Source: Fibrobacter sp. UWH4 (GTDB lineage: Bacteria > Fibrobacterota > Fibrobacteria > Fibrobacterales > Fibrobacteraceae). Taken from it: a stretch of 62,424 bases of DNA. The notes below the pieces were generated by a model, which saw only the letters and a program-made list of their open reading frames with translations, made no database searches and was not told the origin of the DNA. The position numbers were made by a program, and so were the translations under genes. Positions 9,289-27,708 of the stretch are shown piece after piece. The stretch's first letter is position 1. Each line of letters opens with the position of its first letter. The stretch is taken from assembly GCF_900142475.1 (NCBI RefSeq), contig NZ_FRAY01000011.1:1-62424 (forward strand). The letters run 5' to 3'.

Positions 9289-12200
9289 TTACCCGACTCC
9301 GCCTCTTGCCCAGCCGTAGCCTTGCACGGCCATATCAATGAAGTGGTTTAGGAGTAGGTTGCTCTTTACGTTGAATAAATCAATGTCATAGCAGTCCGGC
9401 AAATGGGGCGGTTTCGGGGCGTCCAGAACTTCTTCAATAGTGCTCTTGACTTTGGCGCGAGTCTGTTCGTCCTTATACCAATCAACCACAAGAATTTTCT
9501 GGCGATTTTCTTGCATTTTTTTGAAAAGCGCTTTGGCGGTCAGCAATACTTCTTGTTCCTGCGCTTTTGTCAGTTTCTTGCCCATCACGAGCAAGTCAAA
9601 GATTTCCAATTCTTCGTCTGATAGGCCCATCGTAGCCGCGCGAGAATCTTCTTTCTTCAATTCTTCAACAAGCTTGATCAACTGTTCGTAATAATCTTCG
9701 TTTTCCGTTCCGCCAGCGTTGTAACGGTTGATGATGTTGCGGAATCTTTCGGAGAACTTGATTCTCGTAACGTTTTTGTTAATCATTTGCTGCAAGGCTC
9801 TTTCGATGAATTCTTTCATGTCGTTGATTTCAACAGCCTTGTATTTTGCTTGTTTGATTTCCTTGCGCAGGCCGTTTGCATCAATTTTTGAAAGGTCAAT
9901 CAGTTTGGACCCGCGCATATACGTTTGCGTTCCTGAAATATCACGGAGTTCGCTAGCGCCATCAGCTTTCACGCTTTCCGAAGAGACGCTGCTATCCAGC
10001 AAGTCTCCCATTCTCTTGCGGGCTTTTTCAATTTTCTCGTCATCAATCAGGCGGAAGAATTGTCCGTGCAAGTAAATGAGTGCGCTGAATATTGGATTAC
10101 TCCAATCGCGTTCAAAAATTTCTGGCTTTGAAGCGTCGTAAAGATTCAGCAAGGTGTTTAAAATGACTTTGAACTTTTCGGCATTTTCGTCAATTTCTAC
10201 GATTTTGTTATATGCATTGCGAATGTCTTCCAATTTATCGAAAGTGGATGCTCCGTCCAAAATCTTGTAGAGATCAATTTCGTGTTCGAGAAGGAATTTG
10301 TGAGCTTCTTCTATACAGGCATTAATGTTGCCAATCAGTTCGTCGATATTTTTAGCGGGGAATTCACTACCGTCATCGCCAATAGCGTATGCGGCCAAAG
10401 CCTGCTTCATGAACTTGAATACGTTCACATAGTCCACGATGATGCCGCACGGTTTCCCAGGGAATACACGGTTCGCTCTTGCGATTGCCTGCATCAACGT
10501 GTGGTTTTTCATGGGTTTGTCGAGGTAAAGCGTGCTAAGGCTCTTTACATCAAAACCGGTAAGCCACATGGCGCAGACAAAGACCAACTGCAAATTGTCA
10601 TTAGGATCTTTGAATCGGTCTTCAATATCTTTGCCTTCGGGGGTGATCGCGTTCATCTTGTTGCGATGTGCCGAAATATCCAAACCCTGTGCCTTGAACT
10701 TTTGAACTTCGTCCGCTTCTTCTGAAACGATAACCGCCATCTCGACCTTGTCCATGTAATTCAAGATTGCGGTTAAGCGTTCGCGTTCTTCCTGTGTCGA
10801 TACATTATTCCGTTCGATGGTCAGCGCCTTCTTTTCTTCTTTCCAATAGTGCTGAACCTTGTCGTACATCTTTACGGCAGTAAACTTGTCGACGGATACG
10901 ACCATGCCCTTGCCAAGGAATCCACGACGCGGGAAATGGTGGGCGATGTCCCTTGCAATCTTGTCTAGGCGGTCTTCGCGCTTGATGACTTCCAGAATGC
11001 GCGAACTGGAATTTTCCAAAAGATTCGCTTCGGCTTCGTTGAGATTCTCGTCTTCGATAATTGAGACAACATCATCGTCAAGGAAGTTGTTCTGGAGCCC
11101 GACTTCGGGAACGCGCCTGCTGTAAAATAGCGGGACGGTAGAACCGTCTTCTACGGATTGTGCGAAGTTATATTCCGAAACATAGTTGCCGAACCACTGA
11201 TTCGTAAGATGCTTGCTCCCGAGCAACGGCGTACCCGTAAATGCGATAAAGTTTGCATTCGGCAAAGCGGTTCGCATATTTTCGGCTAAGGTCTTGTATT
11301 GCGTGCGGTGCGCTTCATCTACCAGGACAAAGATGTCATCACGGGTAGAAAGTACGGGATATTTTTTGCCTTTCTCGTAACCAAACTTGTGTATCAGCGT
11401 GAATATGAAAGGTTTATTGCCTTGCAGGTATTCCCTAAGCTGTGCGCCGTTCTTGGGCTGGCATTCATCCTTCGGCCCAATGATTTCGGTGCGAATGAAA
11501 TTCTTGTGAATCTGCGTGTCAAGGTCATCGCGGTCGGTGATGACAAGGAATGTGAAATTCCCATGGAACTTGCGATTGACCTTGCGGGCGAACATCGCCA
11601 TCGAATAACTCTTGCCGCTCCCTTGTGTGTGCCAGAAAACGCCGAGCTTGCCGTCCAGTTCCTTGCGGTTCTTTACTGCCTCGCACAAGTTGTTCACACC
11701 CATGAACTGGTGGTTCTTGGCGATAATCTTGATGGACTGGTTTTCAAACAAGATGAAGTTTTCGATATAGTCGATGATGGTCGCCTTGTTTAGCAATCCC
11801 TTAACCATGTATTCAGCGCTGACACCTTCGCCGCGAATGTATTTGCGGTCGATTTTATCGTCTTCGCTAGACTTGAGCCATTCAAAGAAATAATCGTAAC
11901 TGGCGTTGAACGCCCCAAGCTTTGTCTCGAAACCGTTCGAAAGCACGCAAATCTGGTTGAGCGCGAAAAGGTTCGGAATATCCTTCTTGTAGCTCGTTAA
12001 ATTCTTGTTGTAGGCTTCTTCAATCTTGACGGTGCTATTTTTCAGTTCGATAAAGACAAGTGGCAACCCATTTACAAATATCAAAACATCGGGACGGCGG
12101 TAATTGAACCGTCCTTGAATCCACATTTGCGAAACAGCCGTAAATGTATTGTTTTCGGGGTGTACAAAATCAATAAAAGCAACATCCTCAAAATCCGACT

Positions 12201-12540
12201 TGCCGTCCCTGATAAATTTCACGCGAACGCCATCACGCAGCTTTTTGTAGAGCGTGTAATTGGTTGCGGTTATATCTGTTCCTGAATAGTCTCGTGCAAG
12301 TTCATGGACTAGTTCGTCCAACTTGTCTTTTGGGACATTCGGATTGAGCCTTGTGAGTGATTCTCGCAAGATTGCTGGCAAAACGCCTTGCTTTTTGTTT
12401 GCCCTACCAGTTCCGTCATTCAGGTCATCCATTTTTTCCGGAGATGGGTCACAACGGACAATCTGATAGCCGAAGGGCTCTGCCTCCAGCATTTTCAGAA
12501 TAGCCTGTTCAATGTCATCTTCCGAAATAAAGGACTTCAT
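9289..12540 (-). CDS. hsdR: Type I restriction enzyme R subunit HsdR
   Basis: 1083 aa. The N-terminal PD-(D/E)xK nuclease has P150-D151 and E165-L-K167 (FIELK). The SF2 motor follows, with Walker A TQGSGKS (305-311), DEAH box (408-411) and FTGTPLLG (motif III). A long helical C-terminus would contact HsdM/S. The protein translocates and cuts DNA unmethylated at the HsdS target. All key residues look intact. It is on the same strand as hsdM and hsdS but 4 kb downstream of hsdS, with AbiTii and YobI-like genes between, an unusual spread for a type I operon. The ATG at 12540 lacks a clear Shine-Dalgarno sequence. Confidence 0.95.
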   Translation of the reverse strand: MKSFISEDDIEQAILKMLEAEPFGYQIVRCDPSPEKMDDLNDGTGRANKKQGVLPAILRESLTRLNPNVPKDKLDELVHELARDYSGTDITATNYTLYKKLRDGVRVKFIRDGKSDFEDVAFIDFVHPENNTFTAVSQMWIQGRFNYRRPDVLIFVNGLPLVFIELKNSTVKIEEAYNKNLTSYKKDIPNLFALNQICVLSNGFETKLGAFNASYDYFFEWLKSSEDDKIDRKYIRGEGVSAEYMVKGLLNKATIIDYIENFILFENQSIKIIAKNHQFMGVNNLCEAVKNRKELDGKLGVFWHTQGSGKSYSMAMFARKVNRKFHGNFTFLVITDRDDLDTQIHKNFIRTEIIGPKDECQPKNGAQLREYLQGNKPFIFTLIHKFGYEKGKKYPVLSTRDDIFVLVDEAHRTQYKTLAENMRTALPNANFIAFTGTPLLGSKHLTNQWFGNYVSEYNFAQSVEDGSTVPLFYSRRVPEVGLQNNFLDDDVVSIIEDENLNEAEANLLENSSSRILEVIKREDRLDKIARDIAHHFPRRGFLGKGMVVSVDKFTAVKMYDKVQHYWKEEKKALTIERNNVSTQEERERLTAILNYMDKVEMAVIVSEEADEVQKFKAQGLDISAHRNKMNAITPEGKDIEDRFKDPNDNLQLVFVCAMWLTGFDVKSLSTLYLDKPMKNHTLMQAIARANRVFPGKPCGIIVDYVNVFKFMKQALAAYAIGDDGSEFPAKNIDELIGNINACIEEAHKFLLEHEIDLYKILDGASTFDKLEDIRNAYNKIVEIDENAEKFKVILNTLLNLYDASKPEIFERDWSNPIFSALIYLHGQFFRLIDDEKIEKARKRMGDLLDSSVSSESVKADGASELRDISGTQTYMRGSKLIDLSKIDANGLRKEIKQAKYKAVEINDMKEFIERALQQMINKNVTRIKFSERFRNIINRYNAGGTENEDYYEQLIKLVEELKKEDSRAATMGLSDEELEIFDLLVMGKKLTKAQEQEVLLTAKALFKKMQENRQKILVVDWYKDEQTRAKVKSTIEEVLDAPKPPHLPDCYDIDLFNVKSNLLLNHFIDMAVQGYGWARGGVG

Positions 12541-12736
12541 GCCATAAAATTAACTCTTTGCGATTGGTTCTTAATGATTTTTTTTGCTTTTTTATCCTAA
12601 AATGGGGCTGGTTTTGATGTTTTGAGCGAAAAAGACGTTGTTAGGGATAGTTTAGTAACGCGCAAAAGACAACATATGCAAATGTTTGAATTAAGATACA
12701 TTTTTGATACAAAGTGCACAAAATGGAATAATTAGA

Positions 12737-12776
12737 TATATTTTGTTCGCGTTTTTTAAATTGTTCAAAATGAACA
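12737..12776 (+). promoter_or_regulatory. -10 box and operator-like inverted repeat upstream of the YobI-like module
   Basis: TATATT (12737-12742) is followed by TGTTCA-AAA-TGAACA (12762-12776), a perfect 6-3-6 inverted repeat that would lie just after the transcription start. This suits a repressor site controlling the gene at 12799. Confidence 0.45.
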
Positions 12777-12798
12777 TGTAAATCTTTTTTCGTCAAAT

Positions 12799-14622
12799 AT
12801 GAAACGAAACGTTTTTTTATTCTTTTTGGCTTTGGGCCTGTTTCTTTCTGGATGTACTTCTACCAACATTAATTCTCCTCAACGTGTTCAGCAGACTTGT
12901 ACTACAACGCCAATAAGTAGCAGTGAAAGTCAAGAAAAACAATGCTGCTTAAAAGATACGCTGGTTATACAGCGTGCGGAAGAAGTGTGCTCGTTGAATG
13001 ATGCAAAGGATTCTGTGTCTAATGCGTCGTCTACTAATGTTACGGTAAGTCCCTCGGTACCGTTGGATTTTAGTAGAGATTATGAATTACGTGGTCGCCT
13101 TAATTATCAAAAGGAAGAAATAATCGATTCGCGGGAAGGTTGTTTTGGCGCGAATTGTCAGGTAAATAATGTTTATATTGGGAACGCAAATGAAAAAAAG
13201 TTTTTTTATAGTATCAAAGATACTAGTCAATCACTGAATGCTTATTTAGTTGAAGAAAAGTATTTATATGCTCTAGGTATCTTTTCTTGCGTCCCATTAA
13301 TTTTATTAATAGTAATGATAATTCAGCGTTCCATGACTTTAAAAAAGAAATCGAAAGATATCGGAACTTACAATATACTTTCACCAACTGAAAAAGCTGA
13401 TAATGTTTATGATGAAATTTATAAACAATTGGAATATGCGATTATCGAAGAAGAAGGAAAAGTGAATAATATTGCAATTAGTGGCCCATATGGTGCTGGA
13501 AAAAGTTCTGTGTGGCAGACTTTTTGCGAAAAGATGAAAGTTAAAGAGAAGAAAAAAATCGTTGAAATTTCTTTGGCAAAGTTTAATAATCCCAATGAGA
13601 ATGAATCTTCGCAAACGTATAGCGAGTCAGAAGTGGAATGTGCTATCATTCAACAGTTTATTTTTTCGAAGAAATATACAGATTTAAAGTATTCAAATGT
13701 TCCGAGGATTTATAATTTAACAGATTTAAAGACAATTCTATTGACAACGTTTGTTTTCATTCTGTTTGCATTAATTGTTCCGTTTGCCAATGAGACTATT
13801 TTGAGTGTTGTAAAAGCTTGGTTGAAAAGTCCTTTTGAAATAGGAACAATTTATATTCCTCTGATATTGTCATTTGTATACATTTTAATTTTCTATGCTA
13901 TTCAAAAAATAAACAAACTGAGAATTTCTAAAATAAATTTGAAGGATTTAGAATTAACTACGTGTGACGAGGGTTCTTTATTTGACAAATATATAAACGA
14001 AATCGTCTATTTTTTTGAAGCGACAAAATGTAATTGTGTTGTTATTGAAGACCTTGACCGATTTGATACTTTGAAATACTTTACTAAACTTCGGGAAATA
14101 AACTTTTTAATAAATAATTATCCTGGAATAAAAGATAGAGTTAAGTTTGTGTATCTCGTTAAAGATGATATTTTAGCGTCTGAAGAAAGAACAAAATTTT
14201 TCGATATGATTATACCTGTGATACCAGTGTTAAATGGCAGGACTGAAACTATAAAATATATAAAAACTCATTTTTTAAGAAAGACAAAAATGCCTATAAA
14301 TGACGCAGATAAAGAAAAACCGTTTCTTAGTGATGGATATTTAAAGAAAATGGCTAAATATTTAAGTGATCTTCGCTTGGTGAAGAACTGCTTTAATGAG
14401 TTTAAAGTATTTAAAGAAGTTGCTATAAAAAATCATGGTGAGTTGGACGATGAGAAAATATTCACTTTGGTGCTTTATAAAAATTTCAATCCTAAAAATT
14501 ATCAAAATTTGATAAGTGAAGAAGGTGTGCTATACTATTGTTTAAATGACGCTCCTTTTGAATTTGAAAAAGAAACTGCGAATAAAGGTGTAATGTATTT
14601 CTCTCAGATTCATAACATATAA
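12799..14622 (+). CDS. YobI-like KAP P-loop ATPase with lipoprotein signal (N-terminal half of split YobI)
   Basis: 607 aa. The order is: lipoprotein signal ending LSGC (Cys19); a Cys-rich presumably periplasmic stretch (20-150; C34, C49, C50, C64, C115, C120); a TM helix (about 156-176); cytoplasmic Walker A GPYGAGKSS (229-237); a TM pair inserted in the NTPase (about 311-330, 350-368), typical of KAP ATPases; and Walker B VVIEDLDRFD (414-423). From YNILSP onward it resembles YobI-like P-loop NTPases, which are single proteins near 1200 aa; this one stops at about half length. Its partner follows in the same frame after 30 nt. Very AT-rich against its neighbours, which suggests transfer. Role inferred: membrane-linked defence ATPase. 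Confidence 0.7.
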   Translation: MKRNVFLFFLALGLFLSGCTSTNINSPQRVQQTCTTTPISSSESQEKQCCLKDTLVIQRAEEVCSLNDAKDSVSNASSTNVTVSPSVPLDFSRDYELRGRLNYQKEEIIDSREGCFGANCQVNNVYIGNANEKKFFYSIKDTSQSLNAYLVEEKYLYALGIFSCVPLILLIVMIIQRSMTLKKKSKDIGTYNILSPTEKADNVYDEIYKQLEYAIIEEEGKVNNIAISGPYGAGKSSVWQTFCEKMKVKEKKKIVEISLAKFNNPNENESSQTYSESEVECAIIQQFIFSKKYTDLKYSNVPRIYNLTDLKTILLTTFVFILFALIVPFANETILSVVKAWLKSPFEIGTIYIPLILSFVYILIFYAIQKINKLRISKINLKDLELTTCDEGSLFDKYINEIVYFFEATKCNCVVIEDLDRFDTLKYFTKLREINFLINNYPGIKDRVKFVYLVKDDILASEERTKFFDMIIPVIPVLNGRTETIKYIKTHFLRKTKMPINDADKEKPFLSDGYLKKMAKYLSDLRLVKNCFNEFKVFKEVAIKNHGELDDEKIFTLVLYKNFNPKNYQNLISEEGVLYYCLNDAPFEFEKETANKGVMYFSQIHNI

Positions 14623-14652
14623 GAAAATTTTTAACGAAAAAAAGGCGAAAAA

Positions 14653-16587
14653 ATGATTAAGTCATTGAAGCAACTGTTAAAAGATGTAGAAAATGCTAGC
14701 TTAAAAAATTTTATAAAAAAGCAAAAAAGGATAATTGAAGATGAATTAGGATATAGCCGAAGAGAGCGTGTTGATGAAGACTTCCTTTTCACGGTGCTTT
14801 CAGAAGGATTTATTAATGAGGAATATCGTTATTATATTCAACAAACATCGGAAGACCTTTTGGATGCAAATGCTCGTTTTTATCTTAAAACGGTAAAAAA
14901 TGAACTAGAGCCGGAATTCACAAAAAAAATAACAGATGTAGAATCAGTGGTTGCGGAAATAAAGGATTTTCAGTGGTCTAGCCCTTCCGTGCTGAATAAT
15001 GATGTGTTTACTTATTTGAATAAGTATAAATTATCGAATCAAATAGATTGGTTTATAAATGCGATAAAAAACTATTATGAAGAATATGGAAAAAACGATT
15101 TCGTTGATCAATATATTGGTTCAATAGAAAAATTAAATGATAGGGATGAAATTGTAAATAGATTATTGAACGAATTGTCGAAAAAGCTTAATTCAGATAT
15201 TTCAAAAGATTCTAAAATGAATTTTCTTTTGTCTTTTTTCAGTAATGAGTCTGGTGCATTATTGTGCGAAATGATAAAAAATAGGCCTGTTGATGATGAT
15301 TATACGAAATTTTTAGATGTTTTTTTTGGAAAAAGGGAGCCTGTTTTAGGTTATGTTCTTGATTATGCAGAAACGAATGCTTCTTTTAAGAAAAAACTGC
15401 TTGAAATAAATGTTGAAGTAAAAAAGGTATCGGACTATGTAGATTCTATTCAGAAAAAATTAGTTAATAACGCCATGTTTCTTTTGTCCAAAGAAAATTT
15501 AGACTATATTATTGCTCGGCAGACTGATATCCAACCTCATTTCTATTATGATTATATAAGAAAGAATCCTAGATTAAAAAATAAAATAAATGGTTCTGAA
15601 AAAGCCTGTGATTTTGTCGATGAATTTCTTGTTGGTGACTCGGAATGTAAATTTGCGCCTGAAGGAATTGTCGATTTTCTTTTTACTACAACGATTGATG
15701 ATGTTGAAATTGAGAGGTTTGTTGATAAGATAGAAGATGAGTATGTTGATTTGGTATACTTACCAAAATTTTTTAGAGAAAATACGAATTATATTGTGAC
15801 GTTGGATTCGACTATTATTCACTTGTTACTCAGTCATAATAAAATTAAAGTCGACTTTAATAACGTGTTGTTTGTTTCCGCGAGTAATATTGTTGATGAT
15901 ATAATTCTACTTGCGAAAAAACAGGTGAGCAAAGATCGTGGAAGTATACAATTATATTTCATAGATGATTTTGCTAAATTGAATTTAGGACGCTTTTACA
16001 GCTTTCTTTTTAAGGAGAAGAAAGTTGATAACGAACTTTTTGAAGAAGAATCGAATTTTTTAATAACAAATAATGTTGATATTGTCGATTTAGCGACTTC
16101 TGTGATAGAAAAAAATGAAACTATTCCGGACGAAAAAATGCACGTCTTTGTAAGGCTTATTTTTGGTAGACATTGTCCGAAAAAAGAAACAAATAATGCA
16201 TTCTGCGCCATTATCAAGAAAGAATTTGATTATTTCATAAATAATTTTGGAAATATTGAGCATGAATATTTAGGAAAAAAATGCTGGCCGCTCAATTTAT
16301 CAATTCTTCTAAAAAATGAAAATAACATCCTAGAAGATTATCATTTAAGTCATATAATGGGAAAAATATCAATAGAATATTTTAATGAAGTGGTAAAAGA
16401 ATTGTGCGATCAAATCGGCATTTTTGATACTTCGAAAATAGTTGATAAACTTTTAGATGAAAATTGTTTGAATAGATGGATGACTAATTTTGGCAAAGAC
16501 AAAATTGTTGCACTTGTGAATTCAATGAAGAATTTTATAACTGAAGATTTTGAAATTGTGTTGAAAAATAGAATTAATTCGCTGTAG
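14653..16587 (+). CDS. Helical-repeat partner, equivalent to the YobI C-terminal half
   Basis: 644 aa, almost wholly alpha-helical by composition, with no signal or TM segment. The segment DEDFLFTVLSEGFINEEYRYYI followed by the NARFYLKTVKNE helix resembles the start of the C-terminal repeat region of YobI-like proteins (from memory). AAAGGCG stands 6 nt before the ATG. It is in the same reading frame as the ATPase gene, but two in-frame TAA codons (14620, 14632) separate them, so they are made as two chains. Together, 607 plus 644 aa match a full YobI length. AT-rich. It probably senses or acts while the upstream protein supplies ATPase and anchor. It ends 24 nt from the convergent AbiTii gene. 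Confidence 0.65.
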   Translation: MIKSLKQLLKDVENASLKNFIKKQKRIIEDELGYSRRERVDEDFLFTVLSEGFINEEYRYYIQQTSEDLLDANARFYLKTVKNELEPEFTKKITDVESVVAEIKDFQWSSPSVLNNDVFTYLNKYKLSNQIDWFINAIKNYYEEYGKNDFVDQYIGSIEKLNDRDEIVNRLLNELSKKLNSDISKDSKMNFLLSFFSNESGALLCEMIKNRPVDDDYTKFLDVFFGKREPVLGYVLDYAETNASFKKKLLEINVEVKKVSDYVDSIQKKLVNNAMFLLSKENLDYIIARQTDIQPHFYYDYIRKNPRLKNKINGSEKACDFVDEFLVGDSECKFAPEGIVDFLFTTTIDDVEIERFVDKIEDEYVDLVYLPKFFRENTNYIVTLDSTIIHLLLSHNKIKVDFNNVLFVSASNIVDDIILLAKKQVSKDRGSIQLYFIDDFAKLNLGRFYSFLFKEKKVDNELFEEESNFLITNNVDIVDLATSVIEKNETIPDEKMHVFVRLIFGRHCPKKETNNAFCAIIKKEFDYFINNFGNIEHEYLGKKCWPLNLSILLKNENNILEDYHLSHIMGKISIEYFNEVVKELCDQIGIFDTSKIVDKLLDENCLNRWMTNFGKDKIVALVNSMKNFITEDFEIVLKNRINSL

Positions 16588-16610
16588 CTTTTTAAGAATA
16601 CTTGCTTGGC

Positions 16611-17507
16611 TCATTGAACTGTTTTCAGGAACGCATCAATTTTGCTGTAAATGTCTGAGCCGATAACGCTGCAAGTTATGCTTTGCGCCCAAACGCCCAA
16701 ACTGTTGAGTAGCGTTCCGATAGATTTAGAATCTTTTTGATTGATTTTTTGGCCAATTTTTTCAATTTGGGTGTTTAAAAGATTTCTGTCGTTTTCATCG
16801 ACAGATGGTACTTTTATCAGCTCTTTTATAGATTTAAGAAGTTTTTTGGCCCCTTCGTAATCAAATTCTTTTACTCCGTTTGCGTTTAGAGTGGAGTTGA
16901 TTGCAGATCCAACAACATTTGATCCATTTATGTTCCCATAGTTGTTTATAATGGTCGTATTTTTGGCAATGTCTTTTTCTTTAGACCGAATATCAAATTC
17001 TTCTTTTGAAACGTCTTTCGGTTCCAAATCAATAGCCCATTCAGAAATCTTTCTTTTGACTATTTCAAGGATTGTTTTATACTGGTATTTTGAAAAATGG
17101 GCACAGATGTCTCTAGAGGCCAATAATGGATTTAATTCGCCGAAAAGGTTATGTAGTTCTGCAGATATTGGCGAAATAATTGTTTCTTTTGGTGAATTCA
17201 AAAATAATTCTATTTCAGAAGTTCCTTGTTTTACGGGAATATGCAGGCAATTTGCTAAAGGCGAATTGCTTGGAATGATTATTGGTTTCCAGGGACCTAT
17301 ACTACTCTTTGCTTTAAATATTGCGTTAATATATCGATATTTCGGAACTATTTGATCTCCGTAGCCGTCAATTTCTTTTCTTAAGAAATCCGCCATTTCT
17401 TTTTGCCCTAATTTATGGGCGGTAAAATATGCTTTTTGGAAAAGAGCTGCATAAGAAATAGTTGGATTGACGCAATCCATTTGTAATTCTATAACCAGCT
17501 TTGACAT
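16611..17507 (-). CDS. AbiTii-domain protein with C-terminal helical domain
   Basis: 298 aa. Residues 1 to about 75 fit the AbiTii domain (LxxLQ, then AxKLGxxEMADFxxxEIDGY and PxYRxI), predicted to take part in abortive infection. The middle (about 185-215) is an Asn/Gly/Ser stretch with INNYGNINGSNVVGSA, a beta-turn-like linker. The last 80 residues are helical. Its ATG (17505-17507) directly follows the TAA (17508-17510) of the upstream paralogue, so translation is probably coupled. The biochemical activity of AbiTii is unknown to me. Confidence 0.7.
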   Translation of the reverse strand: MSKLVIELQMDCVNPTISYAALFQKAYFTAHKLGQKEMADFLRKEIDGYGDQIVPKYRYINAIFKAKSSIGPWKPIIIPSNSPLANCLHIPVKQGTSEIELFLNSPKETIISPISAELHNLFGELNPLLASRDICAHFSKYQYKTILEIVKRKISEWAIDLEPKDVSKEEFDIRSKEKDIAKNTTIINNYGNINGSNVVGSAINSTLNANGVKEFDYEGAKKLLKSIKELIKVPSVDENDRNLLNTQIEKIGQKINQKDSKSIGTLLNSLGVWAQSITCSVIGSDIYSKIDAFLKTVQ

Positions 17508-18164
17508 TTATTCTTTCCTTTGCGTTTGGATGCTTGAAATAGAATCGTTTAGCACGCCGGCAACATTCGAACTAGTTACATTGCCGTTAATGATGATTTG
17601 AATGGACGGAACATCTTTGACTTTATTTTGCTCTTCGTCAGAGAAAACAAGATCTTCTCCAAATATGCCTTGTTTTTCTAGTTTCAAAGCCCAATCTAAA
17701 ATGAGTTTACGGACAATTTGGAGTATCGAAGTGACTTTTGCAGCCATAAAAATTTTACGAACATGTAACGGTTTGGGCATGTCAATTTCTTGATAGATGG
17801 CTAGTTGTTCATCGTAATTCAATCGGACTTCGAGCATTTCACGTTTGGATTGATCAATTTTTTCAATTTCGGCAACGGATTCTACTATGATGCTCATGGA
17901 CCATGGACTGCCAGCAGGAAAAGATATGGGTTCCCAACGTTTTGCGGTCTCTTTGTATGCTTCTGCATTTACATGAATTTTACGATATAATGGGATGAGT
18001 TTATCTTCTATGTCATAGTAGCCGTTGATTTCATTGGTGCAAAAATCAGCCATGTCTTTGATGTTTAATTTTTCAGCAATTGCATACGCCCTGAGTAATA
18101 AATTATAGCAGGACACTTTTTCTTCAAGACATGCTTGCTGTAAATCTAGAACCATTTTTGACAT
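17508..18164 (-). CDS. AbiTii-domain protein, shorter paralogue
   Basis: 218 aa. It shares with the next gene the N-terminal pattern MSKxVxxLQ, AEKLNIKDMADFCTNEINGY and LIPLYRKI (AbiTii), and the conserved ILQIVRKLILDWALxLE helix. It keeps the linker motif IINGNVTSSNVAGVLNDS but lacks the C-terminal helical domain. This looks like a tandem duplication with later divergence: one copy with and one without the extra domain. It lies 9 nt after hsdS, in the same operon. The shared linker suggests the two proteins may assemble together. Confidence 0.7.
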   Translation of the reverse strand: MSKMVLDLQQACLEEKVSCYNLLLRAYAIAEKLNIKDMADFCTNEINGYYDIEDKLIPLYRKIHVNAEAYKETAKRWEPISFPAGSPWSMSIIVESVAEIEKIDQSKREMLEVRLNYDEQLAIYQEIDMPKPLHVRKIFMAAKVTSILQIVRKLILDWALKLEKQGIFGEDLVFSDEEQNKVKDVPSIQIIINGNVTSSNVAGVLNDSISSIQTQRKE

Positions 18165-18173
18165 GATAATTAC

Positions 18174-19400
18174 CTATACGGCGAGTTTTCCGCTCATTAG
18201 GCGGGGCAAGAGCAGGTCGCGTTGTTTGATGAGGTTGTCACACTGATTTGATAAAGTAAGAATCAAATCGTATATTTGTTGAACCTTTTTTTCAAAGAGT
18301 TGGCAGATTTTAAAAGGCGGAAGACAGACTTTCATTCTATTAATATCGCCAATAAAAAGGCATTGCTGTGCTGCACCATGGGCTGCGTTCTCAAATTCTT
18401 TCCGCATTGATTTGAACGTTTCATATAAATAGCAGGAATTGACTAGCTCTTTGTTTGGTTTGATAATTGCAACGCTTCTCTGAAATTCTATATAGGAAGG
18501 TTCTTGATTTAGGAGGTGGACATCCCCAATTGTTCCAACAGAGGTTATAAGAATATCTCCTTTTGACAATTGGGTTCTTTTTCGAAGCGTAAAAAAAGTT
18601 TTTTCATCAATAGTTCGCTCGTTTTCTCCTATTTGTATTTTCCCATCTTTAATATTCTTACAGCTAAGTAGTAAGTATGGTGAATTTGGCGTATCTTGTA
18701 TGGTGTTATGAACGCCATCTGTCACATTGCTTATATTCTCTATTTTATCAATTCGCCAGCCTTTGGGAATTCCGTTTTCGATTGGGACTGTTTCGTGGCC
18801 GGGGAATCGGAAGCGGACGAACCATTCTTTGTATAGGTTCTCCACCATTTGTTCCAAGATTTTAATGCGTTTGTTGTTGTTTTCTATCAGGTTGTCGTAA
18901 TTTTCAATTATCGAAGTTATTTTTTTCTGTTCCTCGACTAAAGGTAATTGGACTTTTATTTGATTTACTTTATAAATGCCCAACTTTGCTTGGGCTGCAC
19001 CAATTGCTAAGCCTTCCATGTATTTTTTTAAACATGGTTGAGCGAGGTAATAAGCTAAATATTTAGAAAAACATTTTTGAGGGTTGAAATTTGTTAAACG
19101 GACAGCATTTTCTGTTAAATTTGCTCCTGATGCGTCTTGTCCACAAAAGCCGACGTCACCTATATTCGCTACGATAGTGATGGCGACATCATTTTCTTCA
19201 ATGATATATTTGCTTATTTTCTTTTTTACTTCTTCAGAAATGTATCCACAGTTAGATACATCTATTTTCCCCTGTTTGATGTCTCTTGCTCTGATATACT
19301 TGTATTTTGTGATCTCTTTTGAAAAATCAGAACCTAGCGGTAATCGTTTACCGCTTTTCGCATCGCAAATCTCATTTAATCTGTATGTAGTAAATTTCAT
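18174..19400 (-). CDS. hsdS: Type I restriction specificity subunit HsdS
   Basis: 408 aa with the two-repeat HsdS layout. The first target-recognition domain is about 1-150 (YKYIRARDIKQGKI..). A conserved spacer coiled coil is about 155-190 (EEQKKITSIIENYDNLIENNNKRI). The second target-recognition domain is about 215-365 (GWRIDKIENISNVTDG..). The final coiled coil ends PRLMSGKLAV. The two half-sites it recognises cannot be read from the sequence. Lower G+C than hsdM, as is usual for exchanged recognition genes. It is separated from hsdM by a 169-nt gap filled with a composite repeat. Confidence 0.93.
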   Translation of the reverse strand: MKFTTYRLNEICDAKSGKRLPLGSDFSKEITKYKYIRARDIKQGKIDVSNCGYISEEVKKKISKYIIEENDVAITIVANIGDVGFCGQDASGANLTENAVRLTNFNPQKCFSKYLAYYLAQPCLKKYMEGLAIGAAQAKLGIYKVNQIKVQLPLVEEQKKITSIIENYDNLIENNNKRIKILEQMVENLYKEWFVRFRFPGHETVPIENGIPKGWRIDKIENISNVTDGVHNTIQDTPNSPYLLLSCKNIKDGKIQIGENERTIDEKTFFTLRKRTQLSKGDILITSVGTIGDVHLLNQEPSYIEFQRSVAIIKPNKELVNSCYLYETFKSMRKEFENAAHGAAQQCLFIGDINRMKVCLPPFKICQLFEKKVQQIYDLILTLSNQCDNLIKQRDLLLPRLMSGKLAV

Positions 19401-19444
19401 ATTGTTTTCTAAACTTTTTAGATTGTTTCGTTGCTATGCTTCTT

Positions 19445-19563
19445 GCAATGGCGTTTTCGGGGCGTTGCGGGGTGTCCCCGCAGAAGGGGTAGCGTAAGAC
19501 ACTTGGAGATTCCCGCCTTCGCGGGAATGACAAGTGGCTGTAGCGAGGGGAAGGCTTTCCCCA
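19445..19563. repeat. Composite dispersed repeat between hsdM and hsdS
   Basis: Its left part, GGGGCGTTGCGGGG..CCCCGC..GGGGTAGCG (19459-19494), and right part, AGCGAGGGGAAGGCTTTCCCC (about 19542-19562), both recur in inverse orientation inside the coding sequence at 36675-36765. Between them sits ATTCCCGCCTTCGCGGGAAT (about 19509-19528), another family member. It interrupts the RM operon. Confidence 0.75.
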
Positions 19564-19569
19564 TTGTCC

Positions 19570-21309
19570 CTAAAATAACGCATTCATATTCTCTGCAATC
19601 TGTTTTTCCAGTTTCTTCGCTTCGGCGCTCAGCTTGGCGAAATCGTCGTTCAGCCCGAGCATCGTTTCCTTGAATTCTTCGGCGGTCATGCCGTCGTCTT
19701 CAATGACAACGCCCACATATCGGCCCGCGTTGAGCGAATAATCCTGGTCCTTGATTCCGTCTTCTCCTTCGATTTTTGCGACCTTGCAAAGGCCGATTAC
19801 GTCTTGGTATTTTCCATTCGGGAACCGTTCGGTGAGCCAGTTGATTTGTGCCTGCCAATAATCCTTGATTTTGACTTCTTTATCGTCGCTGTTTATGGGA
19901 GCGTTCTTGAGGTTTTCCTTGTATTCCTTGACCAAGTCCTTGAAAGCCTGCGTGTCGCCTTCGTATAGCCGGCTGATGATGGCGAGGTTCTTGATTTGTT
20001 CGTCGCTGAACTTGCGGTGTGCCCTGTCAACTTGGGTGAACACGTTTCGTGCGTCGATGAAAAGGATTTCGTCTTTTTTCTTGCCGCCCGCTTTTTGCTT
20101 GTCGAAGAACCAGAGCGTCGCGGGGAGCGTGACCGAGTTGAACATGTTCGAGGGCAGGGTGACCATCTGGCTGATGACACCTTCTTCAATCATCTTCTTG
20201 CGGATTTCAAGTTCGCTGCCGCCGGCATCGCTTGCGGAATTCGCCATGACGAGTGCCGCCTTGCCGTTTTTATTCAGGGCTGTTGCGAAGTAGCCAATCC
20301 ATAGGTAGTTTGCGTTGGGGACGGTTTCTTTCTTGTCTGATTCTTTTTTGCTGCCTGCCTTGGATTTGTTTCTGGGAACGCCATAGGTGCTGAAACGTTC
20401 GTCTTCCTTGACTTTATCGACAACGACTTCGTCCACGTTGAACGGGGGATTCGCCATCACGTAATCAAATGCGCCGAATGCGTTGTAAGGGTCGCTGTAA
20501 AAAGAGTTCGCTTCGGTGATGTCGCCACGGACATTGTTCAGGAGCAAGTTCATTTTGGCGAGTTTGACCGTATCGGGTTCCTTTTCCACGCCGTAGCAAC
20601 GGAAAGACATCGTGTCATCTTCTTCGCTCTTGTTGTGCTTGTGCATATAGCGGGCCGCCTGCACGAACATGCCGCCCGAACCGCAAGCCGGATCAAGGAA
20701 TTTCTTGTCGTGACCGCTTGGCTGCAAGACTTCGACCATGTAACGCACGACTGTCGCGGGCGTATAGAATGTTCCGCCGTCCTTGCCTTCGGACAAAGCG
20801 AAATTGCCCAGGAAGTATTCGTAGATTTCGCCGAACAGGTCGATGCCGATATCTTCGGGGATGTCCTTGAAAATGCGGACAATCTTCGAAAGCAAATCGG
20901 GCTCCTCTTCGGGAACGAGCTGTGCGTAAACATCTTTGGAGAGGACCCCTTCCATCTTTTCGTTTTCGTCTTCGATGGCCTTCATCGCGCGCTTGACGAG
21001 AGTCGCTTTCTTGGCGTCATCCGGGGCGTCGTTGATAAAGTCGAAGCAGGCACATTCAGGCAAGTAGAAACCGCACTTTTCGATGGAGATTTCTTTGAGC
21101 GTGCGTGCACGACGGGTGCCCTTGAGTTTTTCGAACTCAGCGATGATTTCGTCTTTATGCTGTTTGTAAAGAATGTCCGCATAGCGCAGGAAGATTAGGC
21201 CCAGAATGGGCTGCCCGTATTTGTTTGCGGCAAGGTGCGCTCCAGCGCGGAGAATGTCTGCGGAATGCCAAAGACGGTCTTTCAAGTTCTTCAATTCAAC
21301 GTCGGTCAT
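19570..21309 (-). CDS. hsdM: Type I restriction enzyme M subunit HsdM (N6-adenine methyltransferase)
   Basis: 579 aa. The N-terminal helical HsdM domain (LKDRLWHSADILR..., 10-130) is followed by the methyltransferase core. SAM-binding DPACGSG is at 206-212 and the catalytic NPPF motif for N6-adenine methylation at 287-290. The C-terminus ends in a coiled coil that contacts HsdS. AAGGA precedes the ATG at 21309. It protects host DNA and forms the M2S core that HsdR joins. First gene of the minus-strand run hsdM-hsdS-AbiTii-AbiTii. It is divergent from the nuclease/helicase operon across 166 bp. Confidence 0.95.
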   Translation of the reverse strand: MTDVELKNLKDRLWHSADILRAGAHLAANKYGQPILGLIFLRYADILYKQHKDEIIAEFEKLKGTRRARTLKEISIEKCGFYLPECACFDFINDAPDDAKKATLVKRAMKAIEDENEKMEGVLSKDVYAQLVPEEEPDLLSKIVRIFKDIPEDIGIDLFGEIYEYFLGNFALSEGKDGGTFYTPATVVRYMVEVLQPSGHDKKFLDPACGSGGMFVQAARYMHKHNKSEEDDTMSFRCYGVEKEPDTVKLAKMNLLLNNVRGDITEANSFYSDPYNAFGAFDYVMANPPFNVDEVVVDKVKEDERFSTYGVPRNKSKAGSKKESDKKETVPNANYLWIGYFATALNKNGKAALVMANSASDAGGSELEIRKKMIEEGVISQMVTLPSNMFNSVTLPATLWFFDKQKAGGKKKDEILFIDARNVFTQVDRAHRKFSDEQIKNLAIISRLYEGDTQAFKDLVKEYKENLKNAPINSDDKEVKIKDYWQAQINWLTERFPNGKYQDVIGLCKVAKIEGEDGIKDQDYSLNAGRYVGVVIEDDGMTAEEFKETMLGLNDDFAKLSAEAKKLEKQIAENMNALF

Positions 21310-21475: not shown

Positions 21476-22537
21476 ATGTACGAATTATCCTCAAACAAAA
21501 AGGAATTGTTTCCTTTAGAAAAAATTGATTTTAGTTCAATCAATTTGACGGAAAAGGATATTGAAGATATTCTGGTCAACCGTATTGGAATCCTTGACGA
21601 AGATGTTAATGATTCTGACGAAGAAAATAGCTCTCTTCTTATTGTCGGTCGTCAAGTTCGTAATGAAGGCAATGGACGTAGTGATTTAACCGCACTTGAT
21701 AAAGATGGCAATCTTGTTCTAATTGAAATAAAAAGAGATGTCAAAGATATAAAAGCTCGTGCTGAATCATTTACATTTCAGGCAATTCGTTATGTTGCGA
21801 GTTATTCGACGATAAAAGATGTTTTTGATTTGGCGGATAAGATTTATATTCCGTTTTTAGAGAAATATAAGAATGTAAAACCTCAAGAAGGGCAAAATAT
21901 GCTTGATTTGGCATTAGATAAACTTGAGGATTTTTTAGATCAAAACAATAAGACGGATTTGAGCGGAAAGCAGAGAATCATATTGGTTGCTGGAGAATTT
22001 GATGAAGAAACGCTTTCTGCAGCAGATTGGCTCTGCAAAAATAAGATCGATATCAGCTGTATCCAGCTCAATCTTTTTAAACAGAATGATAAATATCTTT
22101 TGGATGTTAAGAAATTAATCCCGCAAGAGAATTTTATTCTTGAAATTGCGGAATCTAATCCTTCAAAAGTTTCACACAAAAATTCTTCGTCGAAATCAAA
22201 AGCTCAATTGCCAAAGATTAACGCTCTTGTGCGAGCCAATGTTCTTTTTGTGGGTGATATCTTTGAGGCTAAAAATCGCGAAGGAGAATGTGTTGAGTTG
22301 CAAGGCAATTGTCAAGTGAAAATTGTCAGCACGTCAAAAGAGACGCTTGCCGTTGGGGCCATAATGACAATGCAACAGTGGCTTCGCAAGGCTCTGGAAT
22401 GGGATGCTGTGGATACTTATAGATTTGCCTGGGTCAAGAAATCTAAAAATCTAGATAATGAAGGAAAGCTAATCTACGATATCCGAGAAAAATGGATGGC
22501 AGAGCAAGAAAAGGGCGAAAAAATAAATGATGTTTAA
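21476..22537 (+). CDS. PD-(D/E)xK nuclease, NucS/DUF91-like N-terminus
   Basis: 353 aa. The segment GNGRSDLTALDKDGNLVLIEIK gives a textbook PD-(D/E)xK site: Asp70, Glu84-Ile-Lys86, with Gln in SFTFQAIRY (motif IV) further on. This resembles NucS-type or DUF91-type nucleases. A Ser/Lys-rich linker (about 230-245) leads to a C-terminal domain (about 250-345) with MTMQQWLRKALEWDAVDTYRFAWV, which I cannot name. First gene of a three-gene operon; ATG preceded by ATGGAGGCGTAAA (GGAGG). AT-rich. It likely cuts DNA in concert with the helicase encoded next. Confidence 0.7.
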   Translation: MYELSSNKKELFPLEKIDFSSINLTEKDIEDILVNRIGILDEDVNDSDEENSSLLIVGRQVRNEGNGRSDLTALDKDGNLVLIEIKRDVKDIKARAESFTFQAIRYVASYSTIKDVFDLADKIYIPFLEKYKNVKPQEGQNMLDLALDKLEDFLDQNNKTDLSGKQRIILVAGEFDEETLSAADWLCKNKIDISCIQLNLFKQNDKYLLDVKKLIPQENFILEIAESNPSKVSHKNSSSKSKAQLPKINALVRANVLFVGDIFEAKNREGECVELQGNCQVKIVSTSKETLAVGAIMTMQQWLRKALEWDAVDTYRFAWVKKSKNLDNEGKLIYDIREKWMAEQEKGEKINDV

Positions 22538-22566
22538 CATTGGTTTGGAATATTAAAGAGAGATGT

Positions 22567-25272
22567 ATGGTTTCTATTGACAAGGCAATTCTTGACTGTG
22601 ATTCGGTAATATGCAAAAACATATCCCATTTTGATGAATCAGAACGTGGTCTATTGAGTCAAAATATATTGGCTCAATTGAGAAATCTTATTGAATACAT
22701 TGCAATGAGGGTTTGTCTTATTGGCGAATCTATTAATCCTAATTGTTATGAACAGAAAACCCGTGCATTGAATATTTTGGCTACTCGTGGAAATTGTCGC
22801 CCTTTATATAAGTTTCATGAATTACTGCAAAAATCTGCATCTCATTATACGATAGATGAAAATGGCTCTGAAAGATTAATGATTAAATATTACAAGTATC
22901 TTTTAATAGTAAAGAAATTTGTAAAAGAACAATGTGATTTGGATATTTTAAGAAATATATCCGATTTCCCGATAAATACAGATAAAGATTTAGATGTTTA
23001 TTATCAAGCTGTGGCGCAAAAAATTGAAGAAACGAAGTCTACTATTGAACCTAAAGTATCTGATGAGAATAGATATTACATCCAAAAAATAAAACCATTT
23101 TTTGTTGGTTCGGAAATTTATTACGAAGTAACGTTTACAATGGCTTTTAGCAATATTAGCAAATTTGATCGAGTTATTGCTTTTACAAAATATGATATTT
23201 TACCCAATTACTCTGTGAAGTTTTCTCAAAGAGAAGAATATATAAATGTAATGGGGAATGCCATAAAAATAAATATAATTGATGCTTGGAGCGTTTCAAT
23301 TCGCCCTTGTGAAGTTTCAAATTATATGCATATTTTTGGATCAAATATTGAGATTAGAAGCGATGATTCTGAATATAAGATACTGATGAGTTTCCTCACG
23401 AAATACCATATCGATTTATGTGAATTTGTAACCTCTTCACATGACTTTTACAACCATATAAAGCAAGGTGTTATCACAAAAGCTCAAGATTCTTTCATAT
23501 TTGATATTTTGGATAGAAGTCGTAGTATCATTTGCAATGTATTGGCGGGAAGCAATATCTTGAGATATCTTCTTTACAAAATGAAAAATGATATTATAAA
23601 GCGACAATGGGGGGCTCAAAACGAGTTGCTGCAAAATCTTTATTTGGATTATGGATGTATTCCTTTTGATAAAATGCCGTTTTGTACTGCGTTAAGAAAC
23701 CATAATCCGAGGATTTTCGAATTACTGGATTGTATACCATCAGAAAATAGAGATTACGAGTTCTTAGTAAAGAGTATTCAAGTAGAAACAGAAATAAGGG
23801 GTAATCTATTTACAAAGAAAGATGATTTGAAAAAATTCGATAATATTGATGCTTTAGTAAGGGCTTTTAATGGAGCTCTTTATTACAAGCATGAAAATCG
23901 AAAAATCAAGGAAATAAAAGGAAATTATTATATCAAGGAGTATGCAGATTATTGCGCCGAAATTCTACGTAAGTTGTCGGTTTTTGCACAATCTGGTGTA
24001 AATGGATATCAAACGGCAATTCAGCACTGGTTGGAAGACCCTCTTAACGCTATTGATGATTGCCAAAAAATTGAAATTCTAAAAGAACTATTTGTTTCAT
24101 CTAAAGTTGCGTTTGTCTATGGTGCAGCAGGCACAGGAAAATCAACTTTAATCGGACATATTTCAAAATACTATTCAAATGCTATAAAGCTATATCTAGC
24201 AGTAACACATCCAGCAATAGAGAACTTGAAAAGAAAAACCCAAAATAACAATGCTGTGTATATGACTATTGAGTCATATTTAAAAAACAAACAGGTTTGT
24301 TGCCAATGGGATTTAATAGTTATAGACGAATGCAGTACCGTTAGCAACGAGCAAATGGTTCAAATATTGAACAAATCTACTACGGAGTTACTTGTTCTTG
24401 TTGGAGATGTTCATCAAATAGAGTCCATTCGTTTTGGAAATTGGTTTGCAATAGCGGAAAAATTTTTGCCTTCATCGTGTATTTATGAATTAACAAATAC
24501 CTATCGTAGCTCGAATGATGAATTAAAACTACTCTGGGGTCGAGTTCGAAATTACGAAGACTCTGTTCAAGAGGTCTTGGATAAAAACGATATGTCGGCA
24601 AAATTAGAAGATTTTGACTTTCAATACAATCACGAAGATGAAATCGTACTTTGCCTTAATTATGATGGATTATACGGCATAAATAACATCAATGCATTTC
24701 TACAAGGACAAAATAGAAATGCAAATATTAGAATAGGGGTTAATACTTATAAGGTTGGGGATCCTGTTCTTTTTATCGAATCTAATCGATATGCACCACT
24801 CATATATAATAATATGAAAGGACGAATAAAAAAATTATGGAAAGATGAGGTGAATTACTATTTTGATATTAGCCTTGAAATAGCAATCGACCAAATTAGT
24901 GCAAGAGGATATGATTTTGAGTTGCTCTCGACACCAGAAGAAACAACATCAACGATAAGAATTAGAGTGTCGAAATATCGTAGTACAGATAATGACAACG
25001 AGCGTTTAGAAGATATGGTTCCCTTCCAGGTGGCTTATGCGATATCAATCCACAAAGCTCAAGGATTGGAATATGATTCTGTAAAAATTGTTATATCAAA
25101 TGAAGTGGATGAAAAGATAACCCATAATATTTTCTATACAGCTATTACGCGTGCTAGAAAGAATCTAAAAATATATTGGTCTCCTGAAGTGGAAAATAGA
25201 GTTATAGAAAGTTTTAAGCCGCAACATAAGGCAAAAGATGTGGCTTTGTTAAAGTTGTTGTATGACTTGTAA
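22567..25272 (+). CDS. SF1 (RecD/UvrD-like) helicase with large unknown N-terminal domain
   Basis: 901 aa from the ATG at 22567, chosen over the TTG at 22540 because AAAGAGAG stands just upstream. Residues 1 to about 480 match nothing I know. The motor follows: Walker A GAAGTGKST (519-527), DECST (587-591), LVGDVHQIESI (motif III), TYRSS (motif IV), and near the end ISIHKAQGLEYDSV (motif V) and YTAITRARKNL (motif VI). All motor motifs are intact. Pairing with a nuclease gene 29 nt upstream suggests a two-part DNA-degrading machine. It is not Gabija: there is no OLD/TOPRIM protein. Confidence 0.75.
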   Translation: MVSIDKAILDCDSVICKNISHFDESERGLLSQNILAQLRNLIEYIAMRVCLIGESINPNCYEQKTRALNILATRGNCRPLYKFHELLQKSASHYTIDENGSERLMIKYYKYLLIVKKFVKEQCDLDILRNISDFPINTDKDLDVYYQAVAQKIEETKSTIEPKVSDENRYYIQKIKPFFVGSEIYYEVTFTMAFSNISKFDRVIAFTKYDILPNYSVKFSQREEYINVMGNAIKINIIDAWSVSIRPCEVSNYMHIFGSNIEIRSDDSEYKILMSFLTKYHIDLCEFVTSSHDFYNHIKQGVITKAQDSFIFDILDRSRSIICNVLAGSNILRYLLYKMKNDIIKRQWGAQNELLQNLYLDYGCIPFDKMPFCTALRNHNPRIFELLDCIPSENRDYEFLVKSIQVETEIRGNLFTKKDDLKKFDNIDALVRAFNGALYYKHENRKIKEIKGNYYIKEYADYCAEILRKLSVFAQSGVNGYQTAIQHWLEDPLNAIDDCQKIEILKELFVSSKVAFVYGAAGTGKSTLIGHISKYYSNAIKLYLAVTHPAIENLKRKTQNNNAVYMTIESYLKNKQVCCQWDLIVIDECSTVSNEQMVQILNKSTTELLVLVGDVHQIESIRFGNWFAIAEKFLPSSCIYELTNTYRSSNDELKLLWGRVRNYEDSVQEVLDKNDMSAKLEDFDFQYNHEDEIVLCLNYDGLYGINNINAFLQGQNRNANIRIGVNTYKVGDPVLFIESNRYAPLIYNNMKGRIKKLWKDEVNYYFDISLEIAIDQISARGYDFELLSTPEETTSTIRIRVSKYRSTDNDNERLEDMVPFQVAYAISIHKAQGLEYDSVKIVISNEVDEKITHNIFYTAITRARKNLKIYWSPEVENRVIESFKPQHKAKDVALLKLLYDL

Positions 25273-25897: not shown

Positions 25898-26908
25898 ATG
25901 TCGAACGAACTAGCCAAGCAGATATCGTATATTCTTTACAGCAGTCCTGAAGAAGATGTCAAGGTCATGGCTTTAGTCAAAGACGAGACCATCTGGCTGA
26001 CGCAGAAGGCTATGGCCGAGCTTTTTGATGTTAATGTTCCGGGCATTTCGAAGCATTTGAAAAACATATACGATGAAGGAGAGCTTAGTGAATCCGCAAC
26101 TGTTTCCATTTTGGAAACAGTTCAAAATGAAAATGGCCGTTCCGTAAAGCGCAATGTCTCTTTCTACAATCTCGATGCAATTATTTCCGTCGGTTACCGT
26201 GTAAATTCTGCGAAGGCCACAAAGTTCCGCATTTGGGCTACGGGAATCCTGAAGGAATACATCAAGAAGGGTTTTGTGCTCGACGACGAGCGCTTAAAGC
26301 AGGGTAACGCTGTTTTCGGTAAGGACTACTTCAAGGAACTTTTGGAAAGAGTCCGATCTATCCGTGCGAGCGAACGCCGCATTTGGCAGCAGATAACGGA
26401 TATTTTTGCCGAGTGTTCCATAGACTACGACAAGGATTCTGAAATAACGAAAAAGTTTTTCGCCACGGTTCAGAACAAGTTCCACTATGCAATAACAGGG
26501 CAGACTGCTGCGGAAATCGTGTACGAGAGGGCCGACCACAAAAAAGAGCACATGGGGCTTACGACCTGGAAAAATTCTCCGAGCGGCCGTGTGCTGAAAA
26601 GCGATGTGAACATTGCCAAGAATTATTTGTCAGAAAAGCAGATCCGTCAGCTGGAACGCGCCGTGAGCGGTTATTTTGACTACATCGAAGACTTGATAGA
26701 GCGGGAGATTGCTTTTAACATGGAGCAGTTTGCCGCAAGCGTGAACGAGTTCCTGGAATTCAGGCGCTACGACATTCTCGATGGCAATGGAAAAGTCAGC
26801 CGGGACCAGGCGGACGAGAAAGCATTCGGAGAATACGAGATTTTCAACCGCACGCAAAAGATTGACTCTGATTTCGACAAGGTAATCCGGAAAATAAAGA
26901 AGAATTAG
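25898..26908 (+). CDS. rhuM: RhuM-family protein
   Basis: 336 aa. The RhuM pattern is clear: an N-terminal DNA-binding-like segment ETIWLTQKAMAELFDVNVPGISKHLKNI, then SVGYRVNSAKATKFRIWATGILKEYIKKGFVLD, and a helical C-terminus. RhuM proteins were first described on a Salmonella pathogenicity island and commonly sit beside type I RM genes. Their function is unsettled, with a Fic-like or antirepressor-like role proposed. It has its own strong promoter, so it is a separate unit from the helicase operon. Complete length. Confidence 0.85.
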   Translation: MSNELAKQISYILYSSPEEDVKVMALVKDETIWLTQKAMAELFDVNVPGISKHLKNIYDEGELSESATVSILETVQNENGRSVKRNVSFYNLDAIISVGYRVNSAKATKFRIWATGILKEYIKKGFVLDDERLKQGNAVFGKDYFKELLERVRSIRASERRIWQQITDIFAECSIDYDKDSEITKKFFATVQNKFHYAITGQTAAEIVYERADHKKEHMGLTTWKNSPSGRVLKSDVNIAKNYLSEKQIRQLERAVSGYFDYIEDLIEREIAFNMEQFAASVNEFLEFRRYDILDGNGKVSRDQADEKAFGEYEIFNRTQKIDSDFDKVIRKIKKN

Positions 26909-26932
26909 CCCACCCACCACAAGGAGTTCCCC

Positions 26933-27565: not shown

Positions 27566-27662
27566 TTGAAGCGGGTTTGTAAAATTTCGTTAAGCCCCTT
27601 GCCAGCATCCTAATATTATCTACATTTCAGCTGCGGTTCCTAATAGTGCAGGCTCCGAAAGG

Positions 27663-27696: not shown

Positions 27697-27708
27697 AAAG
27701 GAGCTGCT

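What the first reader, a model, noticed from the sequence alone, without database searches (positions are those of the whole stretch)
12799..16587. Split YobI-like ATPase whose first half is a trans-membrane lipoprotein: candidate new defence module
Seen: the first protein has a lipobox (LSGC), six further Cys in a presumed periplasmic stretch, a TM helix, Walker A GPYGAGKSS, a TM pair and Walker B VVIEDLDRFD. The second is a 644-aa helical protein. Together (1251 aa) they match the size and order of single-chain YobI-like KAP NTPases, but two in-frame TAA codons and a fresh ribosome site separate them. The pair is AT-rich, sits on the opposite strand inside a type I RM locus and has its own inverted-repeat operator. 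Inference: a membrane- or envelope-anchored sensor/ATPase with a separate effector. I do not know of a described system with this layout.
Basis: partly seen in the sequence, partly recalled or inferred. Interest (0 to 1): 0.78.

Follow-up and report, generated by a model that had tools for sequence, protein, structure and literature searches.

The report
Two-gene split Tmn anti-phage ATPase
This gut bacterium (Fibrobacter) carries a known type of anti-virus membrane ATPase, Tmn, cut cleanly into two genes (a membrane-anchored engine with a lipoprotein head, and a helical-repeat partner), which offers a natural way to take apart a defence protein whose mechanism is still unknown.

Summary
In detail: two intact same-strand ORFs, A (12799-14622, 607 aa) and B (14653-16587, 644 aa). 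A carries a YobI-ATPase domain (Pfam 1e-89) and matches the Tmn anti-phage model (PADLOC 1e-53). B has no family hit, but profile comparison shows it is the C-terminal half of single-chain Tmn/YobI proteins (E=1.7e-32). The split is real. It recurs in five other Fibrobacter genomes as one supported clade (100/99), each with its own start site and junction, and once apparently independently in a Bacteroidales genome. In every case a ~150-aa linker of the single-chain form is missing. So this is a two-gene variant of a known defence family, not a new module. The lipoprotein head is shared with one relative only and is accessory. B models as an all-helical solenoid whose far part diverges and recombines fastest, so B is more likely a sensor or scaffold than a separate effector. 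The "inverted-repeat operator" is no better than shuffled sequence. The pair fills a variable cargo slot in a conserved type I restriction operon; seven sister species carry AbiEii, Ntox50 or DUF3990 genes there. Anti-phage activity, A-B binding and lipidation are inferred, not shown.

The parts
12799..14622 (+). Protein A (607 aa): lipoprotein-type signal, periplasmic stretch, TM helix, YobI/Tmn ATPase domain with TM pair inserted
   Evidence: ORF; PF20693 E=1.1e-89 (residues 209-579); PADLOC Tmn E=1.4e-53 (model 23-435 of 1273)
12799..12855 (+). Type II signal peptide MKRNVFLFFLALGLFLSGC, lipobox LSGC, Cys19
   Evidence: Read from sequence; hydropathy; the GC at 18-19 aligns with L031/G077. 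Lipidation itself not shown
12856..13263 (+). Presumed periplasmic stretch (residues 20-155) with CxGAxC pair (Cys115/Cys120)
   Evidence: Cys pair shared only with G077; no other credible homologue in 168 genomes of the phylum
13267..13323 (+). TM helix 157-175, C-terminal side positive (cytoplasmic)
13483..13509 (+). Walker A GPYGAGKSS
   Evidence: invariant G-x-G-K-S-S in all six split A proteins
13732..13902 (+). TM pair (312-330, 350-368) inserted in the ATPase domain, KAP-type
   Evidence: the same pair is seen in nearly all single-chain homologues
14038..14067 (+). Walker B VVIEDLDRFD
14620..14652 (+). Junction: stop TAA, second in-frame TAA (14632-14634), SD-like AAGGCG (14642-14647)
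   Evidence: relatives have 12-nt or 1-nt gaps or 8-nt overlaps, with SD-like sequences before B
14653..16587 (+). Protein B (644 aa): all-helical solenoid, homologous to the C-terminal half of single-chain Tmn/YobI proteins
   Evidence: hhalign 99.9%, E=1.7e-32; AlphaFold model
14767..15132 (+). B residues 39-160: best conserved part of B, inferred docking region to the ATPase
   Evidence: 27% mean identity against 17-21% for the rest; DNA-level breakpoint near B codon 160 in G060 versus G116
9289..12540 (-). hsdR (type I restriction), one side of the cargo slot
16611..18164 (-). Two AbiTii genes, other side of the cargo slot
18174..21309 (-). hsdS and hsdM

Best explanation
The pair is a two-subunit form of the Tmn (YobI-ATPase/KAP-type) anti-phage system. 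A is a membrane-anchored ATPase switch: an AAA+/STAND-like P-loop domain on the cytoplasmic face, held by its N-terminal TM helix and by the TM pair inserted in the ATPase. B is a helical-repeat partner that docks on A through its conserved first ~160 residues and in single-chain relatives is simply the C-terminal half. Most likely B, through its fast-diverging solenoid, recognises a phage product or infection state. This lets A bind or hydrolyse ATP, oligomerise in the membrane and stop phage growth by damaging the membrane through its inserted TM pair. The lipid-anchored periplasmic head is an accessory input or anchor found only in this sub-lineage. Shown by computation: homology, domain order, split, clade, conserved junction style, genomic setting, predicted fold class. 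Inferred: A-B binding, sensing by B, membrane effector, phage defence.
For: A: PF20693 1e-89; Tmn model 1e-53 over the same region (23-435) matched in other split A proteins and inside single-chain relatives (E. coli control 2051 bits). B homologous to single-chain C-termini. Split conserved in six Fibrobacter genomes as one clade, 100/99, with SD-like sites and near-contiguous or overlapping junctions. Apparently independent split at the same linker in L073. ATPase model resembles ORC/Cdc6, TnsC and the STAND defence proteins Avs3/Avs4 (Z 11-14). B models as helical repeats. B beyond residue 160 diverges fastest and is exchanged. Defence setting: type I RM operon, AbiTii, and a slot that holds toxin/Abi-type genes in seven sister species. 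E. coli Tmn blocks phages T2 and P1; mechanism unexplored (PMC11846954).
Against: No activity data for any Fibrobacter Tmn. Identity to E. coli Tmn is only about 30% in the ATPase domain. No nuclease or other enzymatic effector found, so the killing step is a guess. The solenoid fold matches are generic (Z below 8). B in the window lacks a ~230-300 aa C-terminal extension present in five split relatives, so part of the system could be missing here.
Confidence: 0.6

Rival explanations
1. B is a separate effector: A senses at the envelope through its lipoprotein head and switches on B, which harms the cell or the phage.
For: Separate genes; A has an envelope-exposed head in the window and G077; B differs most between genomes.
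Against: B has no catalytic family match and models as a solenoid; it is the C-terminal half of single-chain proteins; the envelope head is absent from four of six split A proteins and from the single-chain forms.
Confidence: 0.15
2. Damaged or decaying Tmn: a single-chain gene broken by stops, with B also missing a C-terminal extension, no longer functional.
For: A and B lie in the same frame with two TAA codons between them; window B lacks the extension seen in five relatives and no trace of it lies downstream.
Against: Split conserved across a clade with different frames and overlaps, and with SD-like sites; all ATPase motifs intact; B spans the length of the single-chain C-terminus; both ORFs open and 41-48% identical to relatives over their length.
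Confidence: 0.1
3. Guard of the neighbouring restriction system, like PrrC: the pair watches HsdR/M/S and acts when a phage inhibits it, rather than sensing phage directly.
For: Sits between hsdR and hsdS/hsdM; PrrC-type precedent known from general knowledge; T1RM-embedded two-gene TgvAB works largely on its own but better with the whole cluster (PMC11411939).
Against: Opposite strand; the other five split pairs lie in unrelated contexts without these RM genes; the slot holds other genes in seven sister species.
Confidence: 0.08

Closest known systems
Tmn anti-phage system (single-chain transmembrane NTPase; E. coli, PADLOC PDLC02220)
   Same: YobI-ATPase domain with Walker motifs and inserted TM pair; homologous C-terminal helical half; defence-island setting
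   Different: Two polypeptides; ~150-aa linker missing; extra N-terminal TM anchor, here with a lipoprotein head; the Tmn model misses B altogether
YobI-like / KAP P-loop NTPases (Pfam PF20693, PF07693)
   Same: Domain match E=1e-89 to PF20693; TM segments inside the NTPase
   Different: PF07693 only below threshold (E=0.019); split architecture
STAND defence NTPases Avs3/Avs4
   Same: ATPase model aligns at Z about 11; NTPase followed by helical repeats
   Different: No N-terminal nuclease; membrane-embedded; no sequence match; two genes
TgvAB / GmrSD (two-gene or fused; embedded in a type I RM operon, PMC11411939, PMC4619093)
   Same: Same layout principle: a defence protein found fused or split, set inside a type I RM locus
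   Different: Unrelated proteins and mechanism (modification-dependent restriction)

Membership tests
Tmn system | YobI/Tmn ATPase domain with Walker A and B | tested here: met
Tmn system | Two TM segments inserted in the NTPase domain | tested here: met
   Hydropathy 312-330 and 350-368; hydropathy only
Tmn system | C-terminal helical half homologous to that of Tmn/YobI proteins | tested here: met
   E=1.7e-32 to a profile of 47 single-chain C-termini; weak for the closest E. coli-like members taken alone (L101 2e-5, L093 0.02)
Tmn system | Single ~1270-aa polypeptide | tested here: not met
   Two ORFs; same in five Fibrobacter relatives. Hence filed as a variant, not a plain member
Tmn system | Anti-phage activity | not testable with these tools
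   Only location supports it
Bacterial lipoprotein (A) | Basic n-region, hydrophobic core, lipobox [LVI][ASTVI][GAS]C | tested here: met
   MKRNVFLFFLALGLFLSGC read from sequence
Bacterial lipoprotein (A) | Lipidation and signal cleavage | not testable with these tools
   Needs labelling or mass spectrometry
STAND/Avs defence NTPase | STAND-type NTPase fold | tested here: inconclusive
   Z about 11 to Avs3/Avs4, but ORC, TnsC and NSF score as well or better
STAND/Avs defence NTPase | N-terminal effector nuclease/protease | tested here: inconclusive
   No Pfam hit outside the ATPase domain; the N-terminal stretch is unmatched rather than shown to be something else

The most novel reading that the evidence does not exclude
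A two-subunit Tmn in which one membrane-anchored ATPase is paired with exchangeable helical sensor subunits, and in this sub-lineage is also fed by an envelope (lipoprotein) sensor: an innate immune receptor with one cytoplasmic and one periplasmic input.
Probability: 0.2. Interest if true: 0.65.

Novelty: new variant of a known kind. Interest (0 to 1): 0.42.

Why it matters
Tmn blocks several coliphages but its mechanism was called unexplored in 2025 (PMC11846954). A natural split at a domain boundary, seen in one Fibrobacter clade and apparently again in Bacteroidales, marks where the protein can be cut and lets the ATPase and the helical half be tested, swapped and purified separately. It also shows that current models, built on the single chain, recognise only half of such systems.

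Tried and rejected
Viral contigs: no relative of A. Plasmids: A matches 636 records, all below 60% identity, with none covering 80% of the query; B matches none. PDB sequence search: nothing relevant for either protein. Inverted-repeat operator: rejected. Readthrough of the two stops: judged unlikely, since relatives use other frames and SD-like starts. B as a truncated Tmn C-terminus: rejected, because hhalign carries B to near the end of the single-chain tail; the extra ~230-300 aa of the split relatives have no detectable counterpart in single-chain tails and no remnant in the window. B-tree topology against A-tree: AU tests did not reject a win+G077 grouping for B (p=0.44), so half-exchange rests on the G060/G116 breakpoint and on identity outliers, not on topology. 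Conserved gene neighbours of the split pair: none shared among the five relatives.

Full report
WHAT IS THERE. The two ORFs exist as described: A 12799-14622 (607 aa) and B 14653-16587 (644 aa), both on the + strand, in a ~30% GC island within a ~55% GC region. Homologous loci come from the genus Fibrobacter (named records for G077, G116 and G135), and the window's genome is in the same genus group. A reads as signal peptide with lipobox LSGC, ~135 residues with six Cys, a TM helix with positive cytoplasmic side, then an ATPase domain with Walker A, an inserted TM pair and Walker B.

WHAT A IS. Pfam PF20693 YobI-ATPase at 1.1e-89 and the PADLOC Tmn model at 1.4e-53, model positions 23-435 of 1273. 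As a control the E. coli 'anti-phage transmembrane ATPase' scores 2051 bits full length, a single-chain Fibrobacter protein 327 bits, and split A proteins match the same N-terminal third. Tmn is a described single-gene defence system; the 2025 paper calls it a KAP family NTPase with two unusual TM domains that inhibits T2, P1 and other phages by an unexplored mechanism (PMC11846954).

WHAT B IS. No family hit in Pfam, PADLOC or NCBIfam, and the Tmn model does not see it. BLAST and HMM searches place it on the C-terminal half of single-chain homologues, and profile-profile comparison with 47 single-chain tails gives probability 99.9% and E=1.7e-32 over B 3-638 (profile positions) against tail 171-780 of 840. 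The tail starts at the end of the ATPase domain, so about 150 residues of the single-chain form, with a coiled-coil-like consensus, have no counterpart in the split pair.

THE SPLIT IS REAL. Five other Fibrobacter genomes have the same adjacent pair. Junctions differ: 30- and 12-nt gaps, a 1-nt gap and three 8-nt overlaps, using the most plausible B starts, with SD-like sequences before B. A sequencing error cannot explain this. In a tree of 55 ATPase domains the six split A proteins form one clade (100/99), apart from a clade of five single-chain Fibrobacter proteins. Among 58 loci found across bacteria, nearly all complete ones are single-chain with ~760-840 aa after the domain. The exceptions at this junction are Fibrobacter and L073 (a Bacteroidales genome), where A and B overlap by 4 nt and B begins at the same place in the tail profile. 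L073 lies elsewhere in the tree with weak support, so independence is likely but not proven. Among 393 Bacteroidales-order genomes only 9 have the ATPase, and L073's is the only one ending right after the domain.

THE LIPOPROTEIN HEAD IS ACCESSORY. It is shared only with G077, including a C-x-G-A-x-C pair; three other split A proteins start with a plain TM anchor, and one shows none. The periplasmic stretch has no other credible relative in the phylum (G077 E=5e-4, others about 0.01). Lipidation is inferred from the lipobox.

STRUCTURE. A pseudo-fused model of A (from residue 178) plus B (mean pLDDT 77.7, pTM 0.47) gives an ATPase domain matching ORC/Cdc6 (Z about 14), TnsC (12-13) and Avs3/Avs4 (about 11), and an all-helical B. 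The pTM is too low to read the A-B arrangement. The G077 B model matches only generic HEAT/armadillo solenoids (Z below 8).

VARIABILITY OF B. In single-chain homologues mean pairwise identity is 38-56% in the ATPase core, 27% in B 39-160 and 17-21% in the rest of B. Between G060 and G116, DNA is 75% identical from upstream of A to about codon 160 of B and then no longer alignable, while G134 and G116 align throughout. A is 72% identical there and B 36%; conversely window and G060 are 31% in A and 47.5% in B. Similar outliers occur among single-chain proteins (L093-L101, L055-L057). This is the pattern of a conserved engine with an exchangeable recognition part. Tree topology alone does not demonstrate exchange.

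SETTING. The same type I RM operon (hsdR 85-93% identical) occurs in seven other Fibrobacter genomes, with 2-3 AbiTii genes in six of them. Between these (or hsdS in L135) and hsdR lies a variable slot: Ntox50 genes, AbiEii with DUF6577, or DUF3990 with a small gene. In the window the slot holds the split Tmn pair, inverted. Precedent for a two-gene defence system inside a type I RM operon is TgvAB (PMC11411939). The other five split pairs are not in such loci, so dependence on the RM system is unlikely.

MECHANISM. Best reading: B senses, A switches with ATP at the membrane, and the inserted TM pair executes. The homology and anatomy are shown; sensing by B, oligomerisation and membrane damage are inference. 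What cannot be told from sequence is whether the pair is active without the C-terminal extension that five relatives carry on B.

VERDICT. A real, clade-conserved, two-gene variant of the known Tmn system; not a new module. Useful as a handle on an unsolved mechanism, moderate surprise.

Noticed in passing
window 9289-21309; L129-L135: Conserved Fibrobacter type I RM operon hsdM-hsdS-(AbiTii)-[slot]-hsdR whose slot carries different toxin/Abi-type genes in each group of species (Ntox50, AbiEii+DUF6577, DUF3990 pair, split Tmn).
   Followed up: partly
L031 7533-10319, L032, L033, L034, L035 (B genes): Split B proteins of five relatives carry a ~230-300 aa C-terminal extension with no detectable counterpart in single-chain tails, absent from window B.
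   Followed up: partly
L033 versus L035: Sharp DNA-level breakpoint near codon 160 of B between G060 and G116, suggesting exchange of the solenoid part; similar identity outliers in single-chain pairs L093-L101 and L055-L057.
   Followed up: partly
L073 5948-8399: Bacteroidales genome with an apparently independent split Tmn (4-nt overlap), B cut by the contig end.
   Followed up: partly
L042 532-3590: Fibrobacter G081 locus with a YobI ATPase ORF of 374 aa and a 4-nt-overlapping 645-aa ORF, broken at a different place from the split clade; could be a frameshift.
   Followed up: no
upstream of A in L032-L035: Shared motif AGAATAAAATATATTTGGCAA about 30-50 nt before A in four split relatives, perhaps a promoter.
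   Followed up: no
window 21476-25272: PADLOC candidate PDC-S11 protein followed by a 910-aa SF1 helicase-like protein, likely another defence pair.
   Followed up: no
window 25898-28782: RhuM-family gene (Pfam hit), and a second gene at 27709-28782 that looks like a YhcG/DUF1016-type nuclease by eye, extending the defence island.
   Followed up: no
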